Source: Sedimenticola selenatireducens
GTDB lineage: Bacteria; Pseudomonadota; Gammaproteobacteria; Chromatiales; Chromatiaceae
Direction: 5' to 3'
Assembly (NCBI RefSeq): GCF_007625115.1
Contig: NZ_VMNH01000005.1
Coordinates: forward strand, 1 to 64,000
Length of the DNA: 64,000 bases
In this document: in pieces, positions 40,553 to 56,322 of the stretch
Layout of the letters: every line of letters starts with the position of its first letter
How positions within the stretch are numbered: position 1 is the first letter of the stretch
Notes under the pieces: model-generated
Databases searched by the model: none
Seen by the model: only the letters and a program-made list of their open reading frames with translations
Told to the model about the DNA's origin: nothing
Position numbers and translations under genes: made by a program

Positions 40553-40576
40553 AAACGCGGCCCTGTGGCCGCGTTT
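40553..40576 (+). terminator. Terminator-like hairpin after fis
   Basis: A perfect 10-bp stem (40553-40562 with 40567-40576) with loop CTGT ends in TTT. It lies 31 bases after fis and 33 before purH, and probably separates dusB-fis from purH. Confidence 0.7.
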
Positions 40577-40609
40577 CCATTAACATCCAGCAAAAGCAGG
40601 ATCAGGACT

Positions 40610-42169
40610 ATGACAGCAATCACCCGAGCCCTCATCAGTGTTTCAGATAAAACCGGTATCATCGAGTTTGCTCAGGCACTCCAGCAACGCGGCATCGAGA
40701 TCCTCTCGACTGGCGGCACGGCGCGCCTTCTAAGCGAACAAAGTATTCCGGTCACCGAAGTCTCTGAGCACACCGGCTTCCCCGAAATGATGGACGGACG
40801 GGTCAAAACCCTGCATCCTAAAATTCACGGCGGTATTTTGGGGCGGCGCGGCATTGATGATGCCGTCATGCAATCTAATGACATTGCCCCAATCGACATG
40901 ATTGTTGTCAACCTCTATCCGTTTGAACAGACGGTTGCTAACCCAGATTGTGATCTGCCAACCGCCATTGAAAACATCGACATTGGCGGCCCTACTATGT
41001 TGCGTGCCGCGGCCAAGAACCATAAAGATGTCACGGTCATTGTCGATGCTGAGGACTACACCCGCGTACTGGAAGAGATGGATCAAAATAACGGTGCGGT
41101 AACCTCTGCAACGCGCTTTGATCTGGCGGTGAAGACCTTTGAGCATACCTCCAATTATGATGGTGCAATTGCCAACTACCTGGGCTGTCGACTGAGTACG
41201 GAAACAACCGATTTCCCACGTACCATTAATCTGCAATATCGCCAGGTCCAGACCATGCGCTATGGCGAGAACCCACACCAGAAAGCGGCATTCTTTGTTG
41301 AGCGCGACCAGAATGAAGCCTGCATCTCTACCGCCAGACAGCTACAGGGGAAAGAGCTCTCCTATAACAACATCGCCGACACCGATGCTGCACTGGAGTG
41401 TGTAAAACAGTTCCATGAGGCTCCCACCTGCGTCATTGTTAAACATGCCAATCCCTGTGGCGTCGCCTTTGGTAGCAATCTGACAGAGGCCTATGATCGT
41501 GCATTCAGCACCGATCCTGAATCCGCCTTTGGCGGCATTATTGCCGTCAATCAGGAATTGGATGGCGCGACCGCACAAGCCATTGTCGATCGGCAATTCG
41601 TCGAAGTGATCATCGCCCCTAGCGTCTCACAAGAAGCGATAGGCATCATCGCCGAAAAGAAAAACGTCAGACTGCTGACCTGTGGTGAATGGAACAAAGA
41701 GTCACTGCATCGATTCGATATGAAGCGGGTCAATGGTGGCCTATTGGTTCAGGACGCCGATCTTCAACTGCACAACGACCTGAAAGTCGTTACCAAGCGC
41801 GCCCCAACAGCCAAAGAGATGGAAGACCTGCTCTTCACTTGGCGGGTGGCTAAATATGTTAAATCCAATGCCATTGTTTATGGAAAAGATGGCATGACCG
41901 TTGGCGTTGGCGCGGGACAGATGAGCCGTGTTAACTCTGCACGCATCGCTGGGATCAAGGCAGAACATGCTGGACTGGTCGTACCCGGTTCTGTCATGGC
42001 CTCTGACGCCTTCTTCCCGTTCCGGGATGGCTTGGACAATGCCGCTGAAGCCGGTATTCGCGCCGTCATCCAACCCGGCGGCTCAATGCGTGATGACGAG
42101 GTGATTGCCGCCGCCGATGAACATGACATCGCCATGGTATTCACTGGCATGCGTCACTTCCGCCACTAA
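40610..42169 (+). CDS. purH: Bifunctional AICAR transformylase/IMP cyclohydrolase
   Basis: Last two steps of IMP synthesis. The N-terminal cyclohydrolase domain starts with [19 protein letters not shown] and has STGGTARLL and [17 protein letters not shown]; the C-terminal transformylase domain has KHANPCGVA with the catalytic Lys-His. Length is 519. The ATG at 40610 has AGGA just upstream. Confidence 0.97.
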
Positions 42170-42228: not shown

Positions 42229-43005
42229 ATGAATATTCATCCGACCGCCCTTGTTGATCAACGCGCCCAACTTCACGACAGCGTCGAGGTAGGCCCTTAT
42301 TCGATCATCGAAGCCGATGTTGTAATTGGCCCTGGTTGCAAAATTGAGAGTAGTGTACGCATCTTCCAAGGCACACAGCTTGGCGAGAATAACAGGGTAT
42401 ACCACGGTGCAGTACTCGGCTGTGAACCTCAAGACCTGGGTTTCACGATAGAGAAAAGCCGACCCCTGATAGTTGGCAACAACAATCATTTCAAAGAAGG
42501 GGTCAACATCAGTCGTGGCGTTAAGACAGACGGCGGAACACAGGTCGGTGACAATAACTATTTCATGTGCGGTTTCCATGCCGGCCATGACTGTCATCTT
42601 GGCAATCACAATGTATTCGGCCCCAACAGCACCATTGCGGGCCATGTGGAACTGGGCGATCGAATCTTTATCTCCGGCCTGGTAGCGATACATCAATTCT
42701 GCTTTATTGGCGACTACGCCATGATTGCTGGTTGCACAAAAGTGGTGAAGGACATCCCACCTTATGTTACTTGCGATGGCAACCCCGCCCGCATCATTGG
42801 CCTCAACAGCATTGGCTTGCGACGCGCTGGAATTTCTGCAGAAAACAGGGCAGCGATCAAGCAGACATATAAGACGATCTATCACGACAATCTTAATATC
42901 AGCCAGGCATTGGCTGCATTGAAAGAGCGTGCCCCTACAACCGAGACTGAAGCTATCATCCGCTTTTTCGAACAGAGTGATCGTGGCGTCACTACTCATC
43001 GATGA
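42229..43005 (+). CDS. LpxA-like acyl-ACP:UDP-aminosugar acyltransferase
   Basis: A 258-residue left-handed beta-helix protein with hexapeptide repeats, homologous to LpxA, which puts the first acyl chain on UDP-GlcNAc in lipid A synthesis. The catalytic His pair is kept (His117 and His120 in GFHAGHDC), as is AIHQFCFIGDYAMIAGC and a C-terminal helical domain. The E. coli QDLKY loop, with substrate-binding Lys76, reads QDLGF here (Gly71). It stands between purH and purD, away from the usual lpxD-fabZ-lpxA-lpxB cluster, so it is either a relocated lpxA or a second, divergent copy with another substrate. Confidence 0.85.
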   Translation: MNIHPTALVDQRAQLHDSVEVGPYSIIEADVVIGPGCKIESSVRIFQGTQLGENNRVYHGAVLGCEPQDLGFTIEKSRPLIVGNNNHFKEGVNISRGVKTDGGTQVGDNNYFMCGFHAGHDCHLGNHNVFGPNSTIAGHVELGDRIFISGLVAIHQFCFIGDYAMIAGCTKVVKDIPPYVTCDGNPARIIGLNSIGLRRAGISAENRAAIKQTYKTIYHDNLNISQALAALKERAPTTETEAIIRFFEQSDRGVTTHR

Positions 43006-43051: not shown

Positions 43052-44344
43052 ATGAACATCCTGATTATCGGCGGCGGCGGACGTGAACACGCACTGGCCT
43101 GGAAGGCATCCCAATCCCCACTGGCGGAGAAGATTTTTCTGGCACCGGGTAACGCCGGCACTGCGCTTGAGCCCGGCATGGAAAATGTTCCGATCAGTGT
43201 TGAGGATATTGACGCGCTGGTAGCATTTGCCCAACGCCAGGATATTGGCCTGACAATCGTCGGCCCAGAAGCACCGCTGGTACTGGGCGTGGTCGATGCG
43301 TTCACTGCGGCTGGGCTGAAATGCTTCGGCCCTACACAAGGCGCGGCGCAACTGGAGGGTTCCAAGGCTTTCACCAAAGATTTTCTGGCGCGCCACAATA
43401 TTCCTACCGCCGCCTATGGCAACTTCACCGAAATCAATGATGCACTCGCCTACCTAAAGCAAGTGGGTGTACCCATCGTAATCAAGGCCGACGGCCTTGC
43501 TGCCGGTAAAGGCGTAATCATCGCTACCGATATGGCAACAGCAGAAGAGACCGTTCGCGACATGCTTTCGGGTAACAGTTTTGGTGATGCTGGCCACCGC
43601 GTGGTCATAGAGGAGTTTTTAACCGGCGAAGAGGCCAGCTTCATTGTAATGGTCGATGGTGAGCATATCCTGCCAATGGCCAGCTCACAGGACCATAAGG
43701 CCCGGGATAATGGCGACAAGGGCCCAAACACGGGCGGCATGGGTGCCTACTCCCCCGCACCGGTAGTCACCCCCGAGATGCATGATCGAATCATGCATGA
43801 GGTCATCATTCCAACAGTGCAAGGTATGGCCTCAGAAGGACTCCCCTACACCGGTTTCCTCTATGCCGGGGTGATGATTAACGCTGACGGCATACCGAAA
43901 GTGCTGGAGTACAACTGCCGGTTTGGCGACCCTGAGACGCAGCCCATTATGCTGCGCATGAAATCCGACATTGTCGCTCACTGCCTTGCTGCACTGGAGG
44001 GACAATTGGACCAAGAGCAAACAGAGTGGGATCCCCGCGCTTCACTAGGTGTTGTACTGGCGGCGGGAGGCTATCCTGAAGCCTATAATAAGGGCGACAT
44101 TATTAACGGCCTGCCAACCACTGCGACCGAAGGCGAAAAGGTTTTTCATGCCGGGACCAGCGAGCAGAACGGAGCCGTCGTCACAGCAGGTGGACGTGTA
44201 TTATGCGTAACCGCCTTAGGCGAAACTGTCGCCGTGGCCCAGCAGCGCGCCTACAAGCTTATCCAACAAATCAACTGGGACGGTGTCTACTACCGCACGG
44301 ATATTGGCTATCGCGCTATTGCACGCGAACAAGCCAAGGAATAA
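43052..44344 (+). CDS. purD: Phosphoribosylamine-glycine ligase (GAR synthetase)
   Basis: Second step of purine synthesis. The start MNILIIGGGGREHALAWK, the ATP-grasp segments VIKADGLAAGKGV and SSQDHKARDNGDKGPNTGGMG, and LEYNCRFGDPETQ are diagnostic. Length is 430. The ATG at 43052 fits the family start; the frame is open further upstream into lpxA. In pseudomonads purD follows purH directly. Confidence 0.97.
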   Translation: MNILIIGGGGREHALAWKASQSPLAEKIFLAPGNAGTALEPGMENVPISVEDIDALVAFAQRQDIGLTIVGPEAPLVLGVVDAFTAAGLKCFGPTQGAAQLEGSKAFTKDFLARHNIPTAAYGNFTEINDALAYLKQVGVPIVIKADGLAAGKGVIIATDMATAEETVRDMLSGNSFGDAGHRVVIEEFLTGEEASFIVMVDGEHILPMASSQDHKARDNGDKGPNTGGMGAYSPAPVVTPEMHDRIMHEVIIPTVQGMASEGLPYTGFLYAGVMINADGIPKVLEYNCRFGDPETQPIMLRMKSDIVAHCLAALEGQLDQEQTEWDPRASLGVVLAAGGYPEAYNKGDIINGLPTTATEGEKVFHAGTSEQNGAVVTAGGRVLCVTALGETVAVAQQRAYKLIQQINWDGVYYRTDIGYRAIAREQAKE

Positions 44345-50850: not shown

Positions 50851-51204
50851 TCAGCCCATATAGGCCTTTGCCTCTTCGCCAGGATTCGGCAAGCCAGCAA
50901 TGCGCCAGACCTGCAAGCAGCCCCCAAAAAGATCCTTTACTTCCTCTTTTGAGAGTTCACTACTACGACATATCCGGCGCATTGGCGGTATGGCACCAAG
51001 CCTGAGAAAACGATCTCTAACAAAATGGATCACTCTCCAGTGCGCCGATTCCAAAGGGGCAACGCCTTCCAGCTCGGCCAAGGTTTCTGCCAATTGATCA
51101 TCCCAGATCGAATCGTTAAGCAGAAAACCATCCTCATCGAATCTGACGCCGGCCAACACAGAAGCAAAATTTGCGGACTCGCTAATACTCTGTACTACGC
51201 TCAT
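50851..51204 (-). CDS. DsrC/TusE family protein lacking both redox cysteines (RspA-like)
   Basis: A 117-residue member of the DsrC/TusE fold family. DsrC carries sulfur on a C-terminal arm with two Cys; TusE keeps only the penultimate one. Here the family segments FDEDGFLLNDSIWDDQLAE, ESAHWRVIHFVRDRF and WRIAGLPNPG are clear, but the residue at the CysB position is Trp and the arm ends in EEAKAYMG without CysA. One Cys lies four residues before the Trp (GGCLQVW). Members without both Cys have been called RspA and suggested to be regulatory. The ATG at 51204 has AGGA upstream. Divergent from cysB. Confidence 0.82.
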   Translation of the reverse strand: MSVVQSISESANFASVLAGVRFDEDGFLLNDSIWDDQLAETLAELEGVAPLESAHWRVIHFVRDRFLRLGAIPPMRRICRSSELSKEEVKDLFGGCLQVWRIAGLPNPGEEAKAYMG

Positions 51205-51386
51205 TACAATGTTTCCTACAATGTAAATAGTTCTGTTAAGGTTCGGCCCATTCCTTACCAAACAAAAACTGATTACTTGCACAAAACTATAGCGCGGCGT
51301 GACAATACATCAAAATAACTTTTACGTCTATAGAAATAGTTGATCGATCTAAAACAAATGAGAATTATTATACTTATGGAAACCCT
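51205..51386. promoter_or_regulatory. Divergent control region of the DsrC-like gene and cysB
   Basis: A 182-base AT-rich region separates the two genes. A short direct or inverted pattern (ACAATGT-TTCCT-ACAATGT) occurs at about 51206-51225 near the DsrC-like start. LysR-type regulators such as CysB commonly bind in such gaps and repress their own gene; no consensus site is claimed. Confidence 0.4.
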
Positions 51387-52608: not shown

Positions 52609-52995
52609 ATGAGCAAAAAGAATTATTGGCACGGCTATCTTGAGGCTGGCGCAAAAAGCTCACCTGTATTACGCGATCTGACGCTTGAAACGGGAAATGA
52701 ATCTACCATTTACCTCTTCTCACTGAAGCGTAATAAGATTCTGGAGTTTCAGATCAACATTGTTGAACCTAAGTTACGCGAACTGACTGAAGATGAGGCA
52801 AGTCTGGTAAGCGTATTGAACTCAGGCTACAACAAAGCGAAAAAAGACTTCACACCACGCGGTTCGTTGCGTATGAAGCAGGTTGAAATAACCCCCCAGC
52901 CCAGCACAACAGCAGAGACAGAGTTCGATGATATTGATGTCGCAGATCTGGATGTGGACCTGGATATCGACGATATGGAAATAGACGACGATTAA
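52609..52995 (+). CDS. Unknown protein with acidic C-terminal tail
   Basis: A 128-residue protein that I do not recognise. Residues 1-75 look globular and mixed alpha/beta (KNYWHGYLEAGAKSSPVLRD, then LTLETGNESTIYLFSL). Residues 80-95 are basic (KAKKDFTPRGSLRMKQ), and the last 30 residues are an alternating Asp/hydrophobic tail (DVADLDVDLDIDDMEIDDD). No signal peptide. GGGAAA precedes the ATG. It stands alone between cysB and a convergent sugar-aminotransferase gene. Confidence 0.75.
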   Translation: MSKKNYWHGYLEAGAKSSPVLRDLTLETGNESTIYLFSLKRNKILEFQINIVEPKLRELTEDEASLVSVLNSGYNKAKKDFTPRGSLRMKQVEITPQPSTTAETEFDDIDVADLDVDLDIDDMEIDDD

Positions 52996-53083: not shown

Positions 53084-54199
53084 CTAGACAGCCGCCACCA
53101 AATCACATACCTGGTCGACCTGCGATTCCCGCATCGCTGGGAAGATAGGCAACGACAGTGTCTCTCCACATACCCGATCAACCACAGGCAGATCACCTGG
53201 CTGATAGCCCAACCCTGAATAAATCGTCTGCAGATGCAATCCTACTGGATAGCACTGGCTATTACCGATTTTATGATCATTTAGGTGAGCCCGCAGGGCA
53301 TCACGTCGGGGATGCTTAATGGTATATAAATTAAACGCATGACGTCCCTTTGCAGGGCGTACAGGTGTAATCAGGTCCATACCAGCAAGTCGTTCATCAT
53401 ACCAGGCGGCCACCTGGAGTCTCGCTGCGATGTCCTGCTCCAGCTTCTCTAGTTTCAACCGGAGCAGGGCCGCCTGAACCTCATCCAGGCGGCTGTTGTA
53501 GCCTAATTCATCATGGGTAAAGGGCGCCGTGGCCCCATGATTCCGCAATTTAAGTAGACGATCCCTGATCACCTCATCACTGGTGGTGATCAATCCACCA
53601 TCACCATAGCACCCCAACACTTTAGTTGGGTAAAAACTAAAGCAGCCCGCATCACCCATGCTCCCCACCACCGCATCACCATGCCGCGCGCCAAAGGCCT
53701 GGGCGGCATCTTCCAGCAAACGCAGTCCATGAGTATCCGCCAACGCCCCCAATCTACTCATATCCGCTGGATTACCAAAGATATGGACCGGCAATATCGC
53801 CTTGGTTTTGTCACCGATACGCGACGCCACACTCCCAGGATCAAGATTAAAGCTCGCCTCATCTATATCGGCAAATACAGGTATTGCTCCGACGATAGAG
53901 ATCGCCTCAGCCGTGGCGAAGAAGGTAAAGGGGGAGGTAATCACCTCATCACCTGGCCCAATATCCATCGCACGAAGCGACAACACCAAGGCATCCGTAC
54001 CATTCGCAACGGCTACTGCATACTGGCTACCCACATAAGCCGCCGCCTCCTGCTCAAAGGCCCGCACATTGGGACCCAGAATAAAGGCACCACCCGCACC
54101 TATCTCCTCTATCCGGCTGAACCAAGCTTGCTGTAACGACAGAAACTCATCCTGCAAACTGAGATAGGGCACACCCGGGGTTACAGATTTATCTGTCAT
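53084..54199 (-). CDS. DegT/DnrJ/EryC1 nucleotide-sugar aminotransferase, GnnB-like
   Basis: A 371-residue PLP enzyme that aminates a keto nucleotide sugar. Landmarks: GTDALVLSLRAMDIGPGDEVI, the PLP-binding DAAQAFGA, the catalytic Lys in FYPTKVLGCYGDGG and GYNSRLDEVQAALL. It is encoded after a Gfo/Idh/MocA oxidoreductase, the same pairing as GnnA/GnnB of Acidithiobacillus ferrooxidans, which make UDP-GlcNAc3N for lipid A. The WlbE/WbpE aminotransferases of O-antigen synthesis are the main alternative. The ATG at 54199 is preferred to the TTG at 54211. Confidence 0.83.
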   Translation of the reverse strand: MTDKSVTPGVPYLSLQDEFLSLQQAWFSRIEEIGAGGAFILGPNVRAFEQEAAAYVGSQYAVAVANGTDALVLSLRAMDIGPGDEVITSPFTFFATAEAISIVGAIPVFADIDEASFNLDPGSVASRIGDKTKAILPVHIFGNPADMSRLGALADTHGLRLLEDAAQAFGARHGDAVVGSMGDAGCFSFYPTKVLGCYGDGGLITTSDEVIRDRLLKLRNHGATAPFTHDELGYNSRLDEVQAALLRLKLEKLEQDIAARLQVAAWYDERLAGMDLITPVRPAKGRHAFNLYTIKHPRRDALRAHLNDHKIGNSQCYPVGLHLQTIYSGLGYQPGDLPVVDRVCGETLSLPIFPAMRESQVDQVCDLVAAV

Positions 54200-54297
54200 A
54201 ACATCATCCAAAGGTAAAAGGTGGTTTTTGCAGCCTCACCCCTGAATAGCCCAAAGAGGTGAGACTATGAATAATCCTGTGATAGAAAGTAAATCGA

Positions 54298-55245
54298 TCA
54301 GGAGGCGAGACGCTCGAGTATCTCAGCTTTAACACGCATGGCAACATCCAGCGCTTCCAGTCCTACCACACCATCCACAAGGGGCGGCGTCCCAGATTGA
54401 ACCGACTCAATAAAAGCCAAGAGCTCCGCATCCAGCGGTTTGACCGGATCAATGTCCAGACGCTCCATCACCACCTCCGGCCAAGCCTCTCCGGGTCGTG
54501 GTTTGGGGTAGGCAGTCTCAATTCGCTGGTCGATAAAGTCGAGTGACTCATAGCGATTCTCTTCGAACACACGGATGCGGCGCATCCTTTTCTCAGATAC
54601 TCGACTGGCAATCACATTCGCAACCGTGCCATTGGCAAATTCCAGACGGGCATTGGCAATATCGACATGCGATGTTAATACCGGCGTTCCAACCGCAGAG
54701 ATGGCGGTTATTTCCGACTTAACCAGTGAGAGTATGATATCGATATCATGGATCATGAGGTCAGACACAACATCCACATCAGTGGCCCGCTCAACAAAGC
54801 CCCCCATGCGATGCGCCTCAATAAATCGTGGCTTATGGATGCGATCAGCCAAGGCCATCACCCCTGCATTAAAACGCTCGAGGTGACCAATCTGCAGAAT
54901 CACCCCGGCCTCCTGAGCCAACCGAACGATCTCCTTACCCTGCTCTACAGTGGATGCGATGGGCTTTTCCAGCAACATATGGATGCCGGCCTGAAGAAAA
55001 GGACGCGCTTCATCAAGATGGGCCGAGGTCGGGACCACAATGCTGACCGCATCTACTTTACCCAGTAAATCAAGACCGTTTGAATAAGCCGTACAACCGC
55101 ACTCATCGGCCACTTTGGCAGCGGTTTCAGCATTCACATCTACCACGCCAACCAGCTCGACGTTATCCATGCGGGAATAGATCAGGGCGTGAAAACGCCC
55201 CAGATACCCGACACCAACCACACCCACTCGCAATTTATTACTCAT
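54298..55245 (-). CDS. Gfo/Idh/MocA oxidoreductase, GnnA-like
   Basis: A 315-residue NAD-dependent sugar dehydrogenase. The Rossmann motif is VGVVGVGYLGRFHA (N-terminus), and MLLEKPIAST contains the conserved EKP. The segment IGHLERFNAGV resembles the one in GnnA, UDP-GlcNAc 3-dehydrogenase. It is followed after 98 bases by the aminotransferase gene, so the pair could oxidise and aminate position 3 of UDP-GlcNAc. WlbA-type (UDP-GlcNAcA) enzymes are an alternative. Confidence 0.83.
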   Translation of the reverse strand: MSNKLRVGVVGVGYLGRFHALIYSRMDNVELVGVVDVNAETAAKVADECGCTAYSNGLDLLGKVDAVSIVVPTSAHLDEARPFLQAGIHMLLEKPIASTVEQGKEIVRLAQEAGVILQIGHLERFNAGVMALADRIHKPRFIEAHRMGGFVERATDVDVVSDLMIHDIDIILSLVKSEITAISAVGTPVLTSHVDIANARLEFANGTVANVIASRVSEKRMRRIRVFEENRYESLDFIDQRIETAYPKPRPGEAWPEVVMERLDIDPVKPLDAELLAFIESVQSGTPPLVDGVVGLEALDVAMRVKAEILERLAS

Positions 55246-55720: not shown

Positions 55721-56176
55721 TCAATTGTCACCCCCTTCGGTGGCACCCGCCTCCTCCAGCAGTTTCACTACGGCCATGTACTTTCCCAGATTCGCCCGTT
55801 TCAACGCACCCGCCCCGGCCTTATTTTTTAAATTCACATCGGCCCCGGCCTGTATCAGTGTCATGACGGCAGCCTCATGGCCAAAAGCCGCCGCATCCAT
55901 CAACGCGCTGTTACCCGCCCCATCGACAGCATTTACATCGGCTCCAGACGCCAACAAGGCCTTGATTGTCCGCGCATTACCATTAAACGCCGCCAGCAAC
56001 AGAGCCGGACGCCCGGCGCCATTCTTGGCATTGGCATCAGCCCCTTGAGCCAGCAGAGTTTTGACCTGTTGCTCCTGCCCAAGACTGGCAGCAGCCAACA
56101 AAAACTGATTGGGATCCGCTGACCAGGCATTCAGCGAGACACCAAGGAGAAGAAGTAACAGTAGTCTCATGTACAT
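55721..56176 (-). CDS. Exported ankyrin-repeat protein
   Basis: A 151-residue protein with a signal peptide (ending NAWSA at about residue 20) and about four ankyrin repeats; the units ADVNAVDGAGNSALMDAAA and ADVNLKNKAGAGALKRA are regular. It is probably periplasmic and mediates protein contacts. The ATG at 56176 is chosen because AAGG lies 9 bases upstream; ATGs at 56185 and 56170 are alternatives. It is a single-gene unit; homologues next to catalase genes protect against peroxide in pseudomonads, but no such gene is here. Confidence 0.85.
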   Translation of the reverse strand: MYMRLLLLLLLGVSLNAWSADPNQFLLAAASLGQEQQVKTLLAQGADANAKNGAGRPALLLAAFNGNARTIKALLASGADVNAVDGAGNSALMDAAAFGHEAAVMTLIQAGADVNLKNKAGAGALKRANLGKYMAVVKLLEEAGATEGGDN

Positions 56177-56322
56177 CGGTAACATCCTTGAAAGACTTCA
56201 TCGGCTAAGACGATTACACTAGTGAGCGACCGAACAACAAAAATCTGAAGCCACCAGGTTACCCCTAAGCAGCAGATTTCAGATAAACTTTAGCGGCAGA
56301 ACAAGGCTAAGATCACGCCAAA

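What the first reader, a model, noticed from the sequence alone, without database searches (positions are those of the whole stretch)
53084..55245. GnnA/GnnB-like pair: possible 2,3-diamino lipid A
An oxidoreductase with the HLERFN segment followed by a DegT-type aminotransferase matches the GnnA-GnnB pair that converts UDP-GlcNAc to UDP-GlcNAc3N. With an unusual LpxA-like protein in the same window, this suggests lipid A with amide-linked acyl chains at position 3, which is more stable to alkali and to esterases. No WbpA/WbpD-type or glycosyltransferase genes are nearby, which weighs against an O-antigen pathway.
Basis: partly seen in the sequence, partly recalled or inferred. Interest (0 to 1): 0.55.

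Follow-up and report, generated by a model that had tools for sequence, protein, structure and literature searches.

The report
Second LpxA plus GnnA/GnnB pair
This sulfur-bacterium relative appears to make a rare nitrogen-linked building block for the lipid anchor of its outer membrane and to carry a second, dedicated enzyme for it beside the normal one, so its endotoxin is probably a mixture of two chemical types.

Summary
The two genes are real, adjacent and same-strand: a Gfo/Idh/MocA dehydrogenase (54298-55245) and a DegT aminotransferase (53084-54211). The dehydrogenase is nearest to UDP-GlcNAc 3-dehydrogenase (219 bits) and far from WlbA (57 bits). The aminotransferase falls in a clade whose 11 members all sit beside gnnA, apart from the genome's own WbpE-type paralogue in a separate WlbA/B/E-like set. 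The "unusual LpxA" (42229-43005) is the key: the genome has a canonical LpxA elsewhere, and this second one groups with Leptospira interrogans LpxA (301 bits, next 199; starred clade). Across 146 genomes of the family (Chromatiaceae/Sedimenticolaceae by named relatives) GnnA, a DegT aminotransferase and a second LpxA are all present in 104 and all absent in 30. Best reading: UDP-GlcNAc3N is made and acylated by LpxA2 to give 3-amide lipid A, alongside ester precursors from LpxA1, i.e. a mixed or hybrid backbone. Two lpxA genes plus gnnA/gnnB with a hybrid backbone are published for Capnocytophaga canimorsus, so this is a variant of a known kind. The chemistry was not tested. Most of the family lacks an adjacent GnnB and probably uses an unlinked WbpE-clade enzyme.

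The parts
54298..55245 (-). gnnA-like: UDP-GlcNAc 3-dehydrogenase (Gfo/Idh/MocA), 315 aa
53084..54211 (-). gnnB-like: DegT/DnrJ PLP aminotransferase, 375 aa (start may be the ATG four codons in)
42229..43005 (+). lpxA2: second LpxA, Leptospira-type, between purH and purD
40565..42169 (+). purH, conserved upstream neighbour of lpxA2 (context only)
   Evidence: adjacent to lpxA2 in 38 of 38 loci examined; the gene name is recalled from its sequence
43052..44344 (+). purD, downstream neighbour of lpxA2 (context only)
   Evidence: beside lpxA2 in 27 of 38 loci examined, several of the rest being short loci; the gene name is recalled from its sequence
55721..56185 (-). ankyrin-repeat protein upstream of gnnA, a recurrent neighbour (context only)

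Best explanation
GnnA oxidises C3 of UDP-GlcNAc and GnnB aminates the 3-keto sugar to give UDP-GlcNAc3N. LpxA2, a Leptospira-type acyltransferase, puts the (R)-3-hydroxyacyl chain on the 3-amine as an amide. LpxC, LpxD, LpxH, LpxB and LpxK then carry this precursor on. In the same cell the canonical LpxA1 makes the usual 3-O-ester precursor from UDP-GlcNAc, so the lipid A is a mixture or a hybrid GlcN3N/GlcN backbone. Shown here: the genes, their family placement, the paralogy and the co-occurrence. Inferred: the activities, the substrate of LpxA2 and the lipid A structure.
For: GnnA is nearest to UDP-GlcNAc 3-dehydrogenase and far from WlbA, while the genome's own WlbA-like protein matches 3q2i/3q2k at 551/503 bits. 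GnnB lies in an 11-row clade (SH-aLRT 100) in which every row adjoins gnnA. Many GnnA homologues in other lineages sit beside lpxA or in lpxA clusters. LpxA2's best PDB match is 3hsq/3i3a/3i3x at 301 bits, next 199; LpxA1's best is 7oj6/5dem at 310 bits with 3hsq 13th of 17 at 186 bits. PMC7072397 states that 3HSQ is L. interrogans LpxA (passages). Leptospira LpxA nests among the LpxA2 rows (17-row clade, 96*). Co-occurrence in 146 family genomes: all three 104, none 30; GnnA-DegT 108/4/2/32 and GnnA-LpxA2 108/4/2/32. The whole set is present or absent together within genera g7 and g26. In g7 a different second LpxA lies next to gnnA-gnnB. K76 of E. coli LpxA, a GlcNAc-pocket residue, is lost in 33 of 34 LpxA2 and kept in 26 of 26 LpxA1. 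Precedent: C. canimorsus has gnnA, gnnB, two lpxA genes and a hybrid backbone (PMC3342949 passages).
Against: No chemistry. Only 24 of 112 GnnA+ genomes in the family have an adjacent GnnB (coordinates). Presence/absence across related genomes is not independent, and the LpxA2 score threshold was set after seeing the data; the three g7 genomes counted as LpxA2 carry a different paralogue. The K76-GnnA association phylum-wide rests on 3 independent pairs and is not significant. The g7 gnnAB-adjacent LpxA and many LpxAs beside gnnA in other lineages keep K76. NF040723 is matched below its cut-off. G039 has an LpxA2-type protein but no GnnA.
Confidence: 0.82

Rival explanations
1. The pair makes UDP-GlcNAc3N (or its acetylated form) for an O-antigen, capsule or exopolysaccharide sugar, not for lipid A.
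For: DegT and Gfo/Idh enzymes commonly serve surface polysaccharides; the aminotransferase also resembles QdtB and 2oga (284 bits each).
Against: Of the nine proteins scanned (the pair and seven neighbours) none is a glycosyltransferase or sugar acetyltransferase. Presence tracks a second LpxA across the family. The genome has its own WlbA/WlbB/WbpE-like set for such sugars on another contig.
Confidence: 0.08
2. GnnA/GnnB and LpxA2 are a full replacement route and lipid A is essentially all GlcN3N; LpxA1 is minor or silent.
For: In L. interrogans and some alphaproteobacteria the backbone is GlcN3N only (recalled for Leptospira; PMC9470727 passage for the others).
Against: A canonical LpxA (E <= 1e-90 to the window genome's LpxA1) is found in 134 of 146 family genomes, with or without GnnA (my count), and keeps the usual catalytic and pocket residues in 26 of 26 read. 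The hybrid backbone of C. canimorsus comes with two lpxA genes.
Confidence: 0.1
3. LpxA2 is an ordinary second LpxA for a different acyl chain length, unrelated to GnnA/GnnB.
For: LpxA1 and LpxA2 differ at the acyl ruler position (E. coli G173: M in 24 of 26 LpxA1, G in 34 of 34 LpxA2), so chain length probably differs as well. G039 has an LpxA2-type protein without GnnA.
Against: Co-occurrence with GnnA, 108/4/2/32; grouping with Leptospira LpxA; pocket changes at K76 and R205 as well as the ruler.
Confidence: 0.1

Closest known systems
GnnA/GnnB of Acidithiobacillus ferrooxidans
   Same: Dehydrogenase plus transaminase that convert UDP-GlcNAc to UDP-GlcNAc3N for lipid A (as described in PMC8036547 and PMC5644692 passages).
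   Different: Not compared directly with the A. ferrooxidans sequences (none was fetched). Here the lpxA partner is a separate second gene about 11 kb away, and a canonical LpxA is kept elsewhere.
Two-LpxA hybrid-backbone system of Capnocytophaga canimorsus (lpxA, lpxA', gnnA, gnnB)
   Same: GnnA, GnnB and two lpxA genes in one genome; published hybrid GlcN3N'-GlcN backbone (PMC3342949 passages).
   Different: A Bacteroidota species (recalled). There lpxA and lpxA' cluster with lpxC and lpxD; here LpxA2 lies between purH and purD and is Leptospira-type. Their sequences were not compared.
Leptospira interrogans LpxA (3HSQ, 3I3A, 3I3X)
   Same: LpxA2's nearest solved relative (301 bits over all 258 residues), in one clade, sharing loss of K76 and R205 and V/I at 200.
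   Different: The strict UDP-GlcNAc3N selectivity of the Leptospira enzyme is recalled (Robins et al. 2009, seen only as a reference entry) and was not tested for LpxA2.
WlbA/WlbB/WlbC and WbpB/WbpD/WbpE
   Same: Same superfamilies and the same kind of C3 oxidation and transamination.
   Different: A separate such set exists in this genome on contig C22 and matches WlbA and WbpE at 482-551 bits; the window pair does not (57 and 256 bits).

Membership tests
GnnA/GnnB UDP-GlcNAc3N pair | Gfo/Idh/MocA dehydrogenase nearer to UDP-GlcNAc 3-dehydrogenases than to WlbA | tested here: met
   NF040723 215 bits, 7bvj 219 bits against 3q2k 57 bits
GnnA/GnnB UDP-GlcNAc3N pair | Adjacent DegT aminotransferase outside the WbpE group | tested here: met
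   Adjacent; own clade of gnnA-adjacent rows, 39% identical to the WbpE-type paralogue
GnnA/GnnB UDP-GlcNAc3N pair | Conversion of UDP-GlcNAc to UDP-GlcNAc3N | not testable with these tools
   needs enzymology
LpxA | Full-length LpxA above the curated cut-off with the catalytic His | tested here: met
   307 bits against 231; H125 in 34 of 34 LpxA2
Leptospira-type (UDP-GlcNAc3N) LpxA | Groups with L. interrogans LpxA rather than canonical LpxA | tested here: met
Leptospira-type (UDP-GlcNAc3N) LpxA | Prefers the 3-amino sugar nucleotide | not testable with these tools
   needs enzymology
WlbA/WbpB, WlbC/WbpE pathway | Clusters with WlbA and WbpE and with a 3-N-acetyltransferase | tested here: not met
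   the separate C22 set meets it
Hybrid-backbone lipid A | GlcN3N and GlcN in one lipid A | not testable with these tools
   needs mass spectrometry or compositional analysis

The most novel reading that the evidence does not exclude
A whole bacterial family, including purple sulfur bacteria and animal symbionts, runs two parallel entrances to lipid A: a canonical LpxA1 on UDP-GlcNAc and a Leptospira-type LpxA2 on UDP-GlcNAc3N, with loss of the pocket lysine K76 marking the switch. In most members a WbpE-clade aminotransferase unlinked to gnnA has taken the place of GnnB. The cell could then set the ester/amide ratio of its outer membrane through GnnA supply.
Probability: 0.4. Interest if true: 0.65.

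Novelty: new variant of a known kind. Interest (0 to 1): 0.5.

Why it matters
This work gives a specific genetic prediction, GnnA plus a 3-aminotransferase plus a dedicated second LpxA, for a large family whose named relatives include Thiocystis violacea and symbionts of Solemya and Lamellibrachia. It would explain an old chemical report of small amounts of diaminoglucose beside glucosamine in Chromatiaceae lipid A (Meissner et al. 1988, recalled, not seen). It also offers LpxA paralogues in one cell as a natural comparison for finding what sets LpxA sugar selectivity.

Tried and rejected
E200 of E. coli LpxA as a marker of 3-amino use: in the family and in gnnA-adjacent loci it looked clean, but phylum-wide V/I also occurs in 24 of 36 LpxA from GnnA- genomes, so it is a lineage marker and was dropped.

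K76 as a general marker: 35 of 36 LpxA in GnnA- genomes keep K, and 36 of 42 GnnA+ genomes have an LpxA without it (exceptions G177, G184, G386, G408, G436, G339, and GnnA- G188). With single-LpxA genomes on a tree there are only 3 independent pairs, so it is reported as a correlation only. Seventeen of 26 gnnA-adjacent LpxA outside the LpxA2 group keep K.

That GnnA+ genomes without adjacent GnnB lack any aminotransferase: rejected. Of 112 GnnA+ genomes, 108 have a DegT at E <= 1e-60, and the other four (G014, G047, G079, G087) each have a DegT match by Pfam at E <= 1e-20, two of them partial and one with two in-frame stops.

That DegT presence merely reflects the Wlb pathway: WlbA at E <= 1e-90 is in 20 of 146 genomes. 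The two DegT+ GnnA- genomes (G002, G058) both have it, and by comparing by hand 90 GnnA+ genomes have DegT without WlbA.

Rows dropped: six long-branch or distant DegT rows of the 53 were left out of the tree; LpxA rows with stops, under 250 residues or duplicates were left out.

Papers: searches listed no paper on gnn genes or GlcN3N lipid A in Chromatiaceae or Sedimenticola in the held open-licence library; older subscription papers are not held. No structure was predicted.

Full report
WHAT IS THERE. The two ORFs are at the stated places on the minus strand, gnnA (54298-55245) upstream of gnnB (53084-54211), 86 bp apart. The window is part of a 4.03 Mb, 99.99% complete genome. GnnA has the Gfo/Idh/MocA domains; its best family is UDP-N-acetylglucosamine 3-dehydrogenase (215 bits, under that model's 450-bit cut-off) and its best solved relative 7bvj (219 bits); the WlbA-type chain 3q2k scores 57 bits. 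GnnB is a DegT aminotransferase with 7b0d, QdtB, 2oga and WbpE as best solved relatives (324, 285, 284 and 256 bits).

NOT THE WLB/WBP PATHWAY. The same genome has, on contig C22, a Gfo/Idh protein matching 3q2i and 3q2k at 551 and 503 bits (the WlbA/WbpB names for these chains are recalled), a small hexapeptide acyltransferase, and a DegT matching WbpE at 482 bits. So WlbA and WbpE equivalents exist, but they are other genes. In a 75-row tree the window GnnB falls in an 11-row clade (SH-aLRT 100) in which every row lies beside a gnnA; a second clade of 21 rows (97) is also wholly gnnA-adjacent; the C22 enzyme falls in a third, WbpE-like clade.

A SECOND, LEPTOSPIRA-TYPE LPXA. The LpxA-like protein at 42229-43005 passes the LpxA cut-off (307 against 231 bits), and a canonical LpxA lies at C24:36100-36861 with 333 bits, near a longer LpxD-like hit (the LpxD reading is mine). 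LpxA2's best solved relative is 3hsq at 301 bits, next 199; LpxA1's is 7oj6/5dem at 310 bits with 3hsq 13th of 17. PMC7072397 (passages) names 3HSQ as L. interrogans LpxA and lists Gly71 in its GlcNAc pocket where E. coli has Lys76; in the P. aeruginosa enzyme the matching Lys72 is said to bond the 6-OH of GlcNAc. In a 72-row tree L. interrogans LpxA lies inside the LpxA2 group (17 rows, 96*), while LpxA1 groups with gammaproteobacterial LpxA. LpxA2 keeps the catalytic His (34 of 34) but has lost K76 (33 of 34) and R205 (not R in any of the 33 counted residues listed); LpxA1 keeps both in 26 of 26. lpxA2 adjoins purH in 38 of 38 loci looked at, and purD too in 27 of 38, several loci being short.

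CO-OCCURRENCE. The same 146 genomes of the family were searched for each protein: GnnA in 112, a DegT at E <= 1e-60 in 110, LpxA in 142. Scoring LpxA2 as best E of about 1e-57 or better, a threshold set after seeing the data, all three are present in 104 and none in 30; GnnA-DegT and GnnA-LpxA2 are each 108/4/2/32. The genomes are related, so the Fisher values there overstate significance. Yet the set is present or absent together inside genera g7 (3 and 2 genomes) and g26 (4 and 1). The three g7 genomes counted as LpxA2 carry a different second LpxA, 54% to LpxA1 and 42-43% to LpxA2, directly beside gnnA-gnnB: an independent pairing of a second LpxA with gnnAB. Exceptions: G083, G086, G111 (62% complete) and G113 have GnnA without a clear LpxA2; G013 (40% complete) and G039 have LpxA2 without GnnA. 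G039's is the one LpxA2-type protein read that keeps K76. Four GnnA- genomes (G001, G010, G060, G134) also show two LpxA matches at E <= 1e-25, so a second LpxA of some kind is not exclusive to GnnA+ genomes.

THE AMINOTRANSFERASE PUZZLE. Only 24 of the 112 GnnA+ genomes have a GnnB beside GnnA (coordinates). In many of the others gnnA stands alone between pdxA and apaG/apaH-type neighbours (apaH named from recall), and the best DegT is usually an unlinked WbpE-clade enzyme, in some genomes beside msbA, lpxL or waaA relatives. WlbA (E <= 1e-90) is in only 20 of 146 genomes, including both DegT+ GnnA- genomes. By hand comparison GnnA+ genomes have such a DegT without WlbA and no GnnA- genome does. 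The simplest reading is that this enzyme partners GnnA there; not tested, and not every DegT counted need be the partner.

WHO CARRIES IT. Named genomes holding close GnnA homologues include a Sedimenticola MAG (91%, partial match), the Solemya velesiana symbiont (81%), a Lamellibrachia symbiont (77%), Thiocystis violacea DSM 207, Thiocapsa roseopersicina, Thiocapsa imhoffii and Halochromatium salexigens. G031 is Thiocystis violacea DSM 207: the 14,263 bases shared by L144 and L197 are identical. It has GnnA, LpxA2 and a DegT. From recall only, Meissner et al. 1988 found small amounts of 2,3-diamino-2,3-dideoxyglucose beside glucosamine in lipid A of Thiocystis violacea and two relatives; the paper is not held.

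OUTSIDE THE FAMILY. Many GnnA homologues in other proteobacteria lie in or near lpxA clusters. In 299 phylum-wide genomes 63 have GnnA. Of 80 chosen genomes (42 GnnA+, 38 GnnA-), two LpxA occur in 3 of 42 and 0 of 38; in all three one LpxA lies within about 5 kb of gnnA.

PRECEDENT AND NOVELTY. C. canimorsus has gnnA, gnnB, two lpxA genes and a hybrid GlcN3N'-GlcN backbone (PMC3342949 passages); Zunongwangia has a hybrid backbone in minor amount (PMC9470727 passages). The idea is therefore published. New here, as far as the searches named in Tried and rejected show, are the lineage, the Leptospira-type nature and purH-purD site of the second LpxA, the family-wide linkage of three mostly unlinked genes, and the apparent aminotransferase substitution.

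WHAT IS INFERRED. Enzyme activities, LpxA2's substrate and the final lipid A are inferences from family placement and co-occurrence; only chemistry can settle them.

Noticed in passing
L147:8638-11380 (G000:C22): A WlbA/WlbB/WbpE-like set on the same contig as msbA and lpxL relatives, with a waaA relative further along that contig; probably makes a UDP-GlcNAc3NAcA-type sugar.
   Followed up: partly
L126 (G039:C10): A genome with an LpxA2-type protein at the purH-purD site as its only detected LpxA and no GnnA; this protein keeps the lysine that other LpxA2 have lost.
   Followed up: partly
L125 (G007:C23): Genus g7 carries a compact gnnA-gnnB-lpxA group with a second LpxA that is not of the LpxA2 clade, and two of its five sampled genomes lack all of it.
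   Followed up: partly
52609-52995: A 128-aa ORF with an acidic tail next to gnnB and no family match in Pfam or NCBIfam.
   Followed up: no
50851-51282: A DsrC/TusE-like ORF just under its NCBIfam cut-off (52.0 against 53.5 bits), recurrent beside cysB near gnnA in relatives.
   Followed up: no
55721-56185: A small ankyrin-repeat protein with a leader-like start, conserved directly upstream of gnnA in several relatives.
   Followed up: no
L216, L217, L237, L239, L254, L255: lpxA loci of Desulfobacterota and other MAGs with gnnA downstream after a gap of about one gene and no adjacent gnnB; five of these six LpxA keep K76 and one has R. What GnnA does there is open.
   Followed up: no
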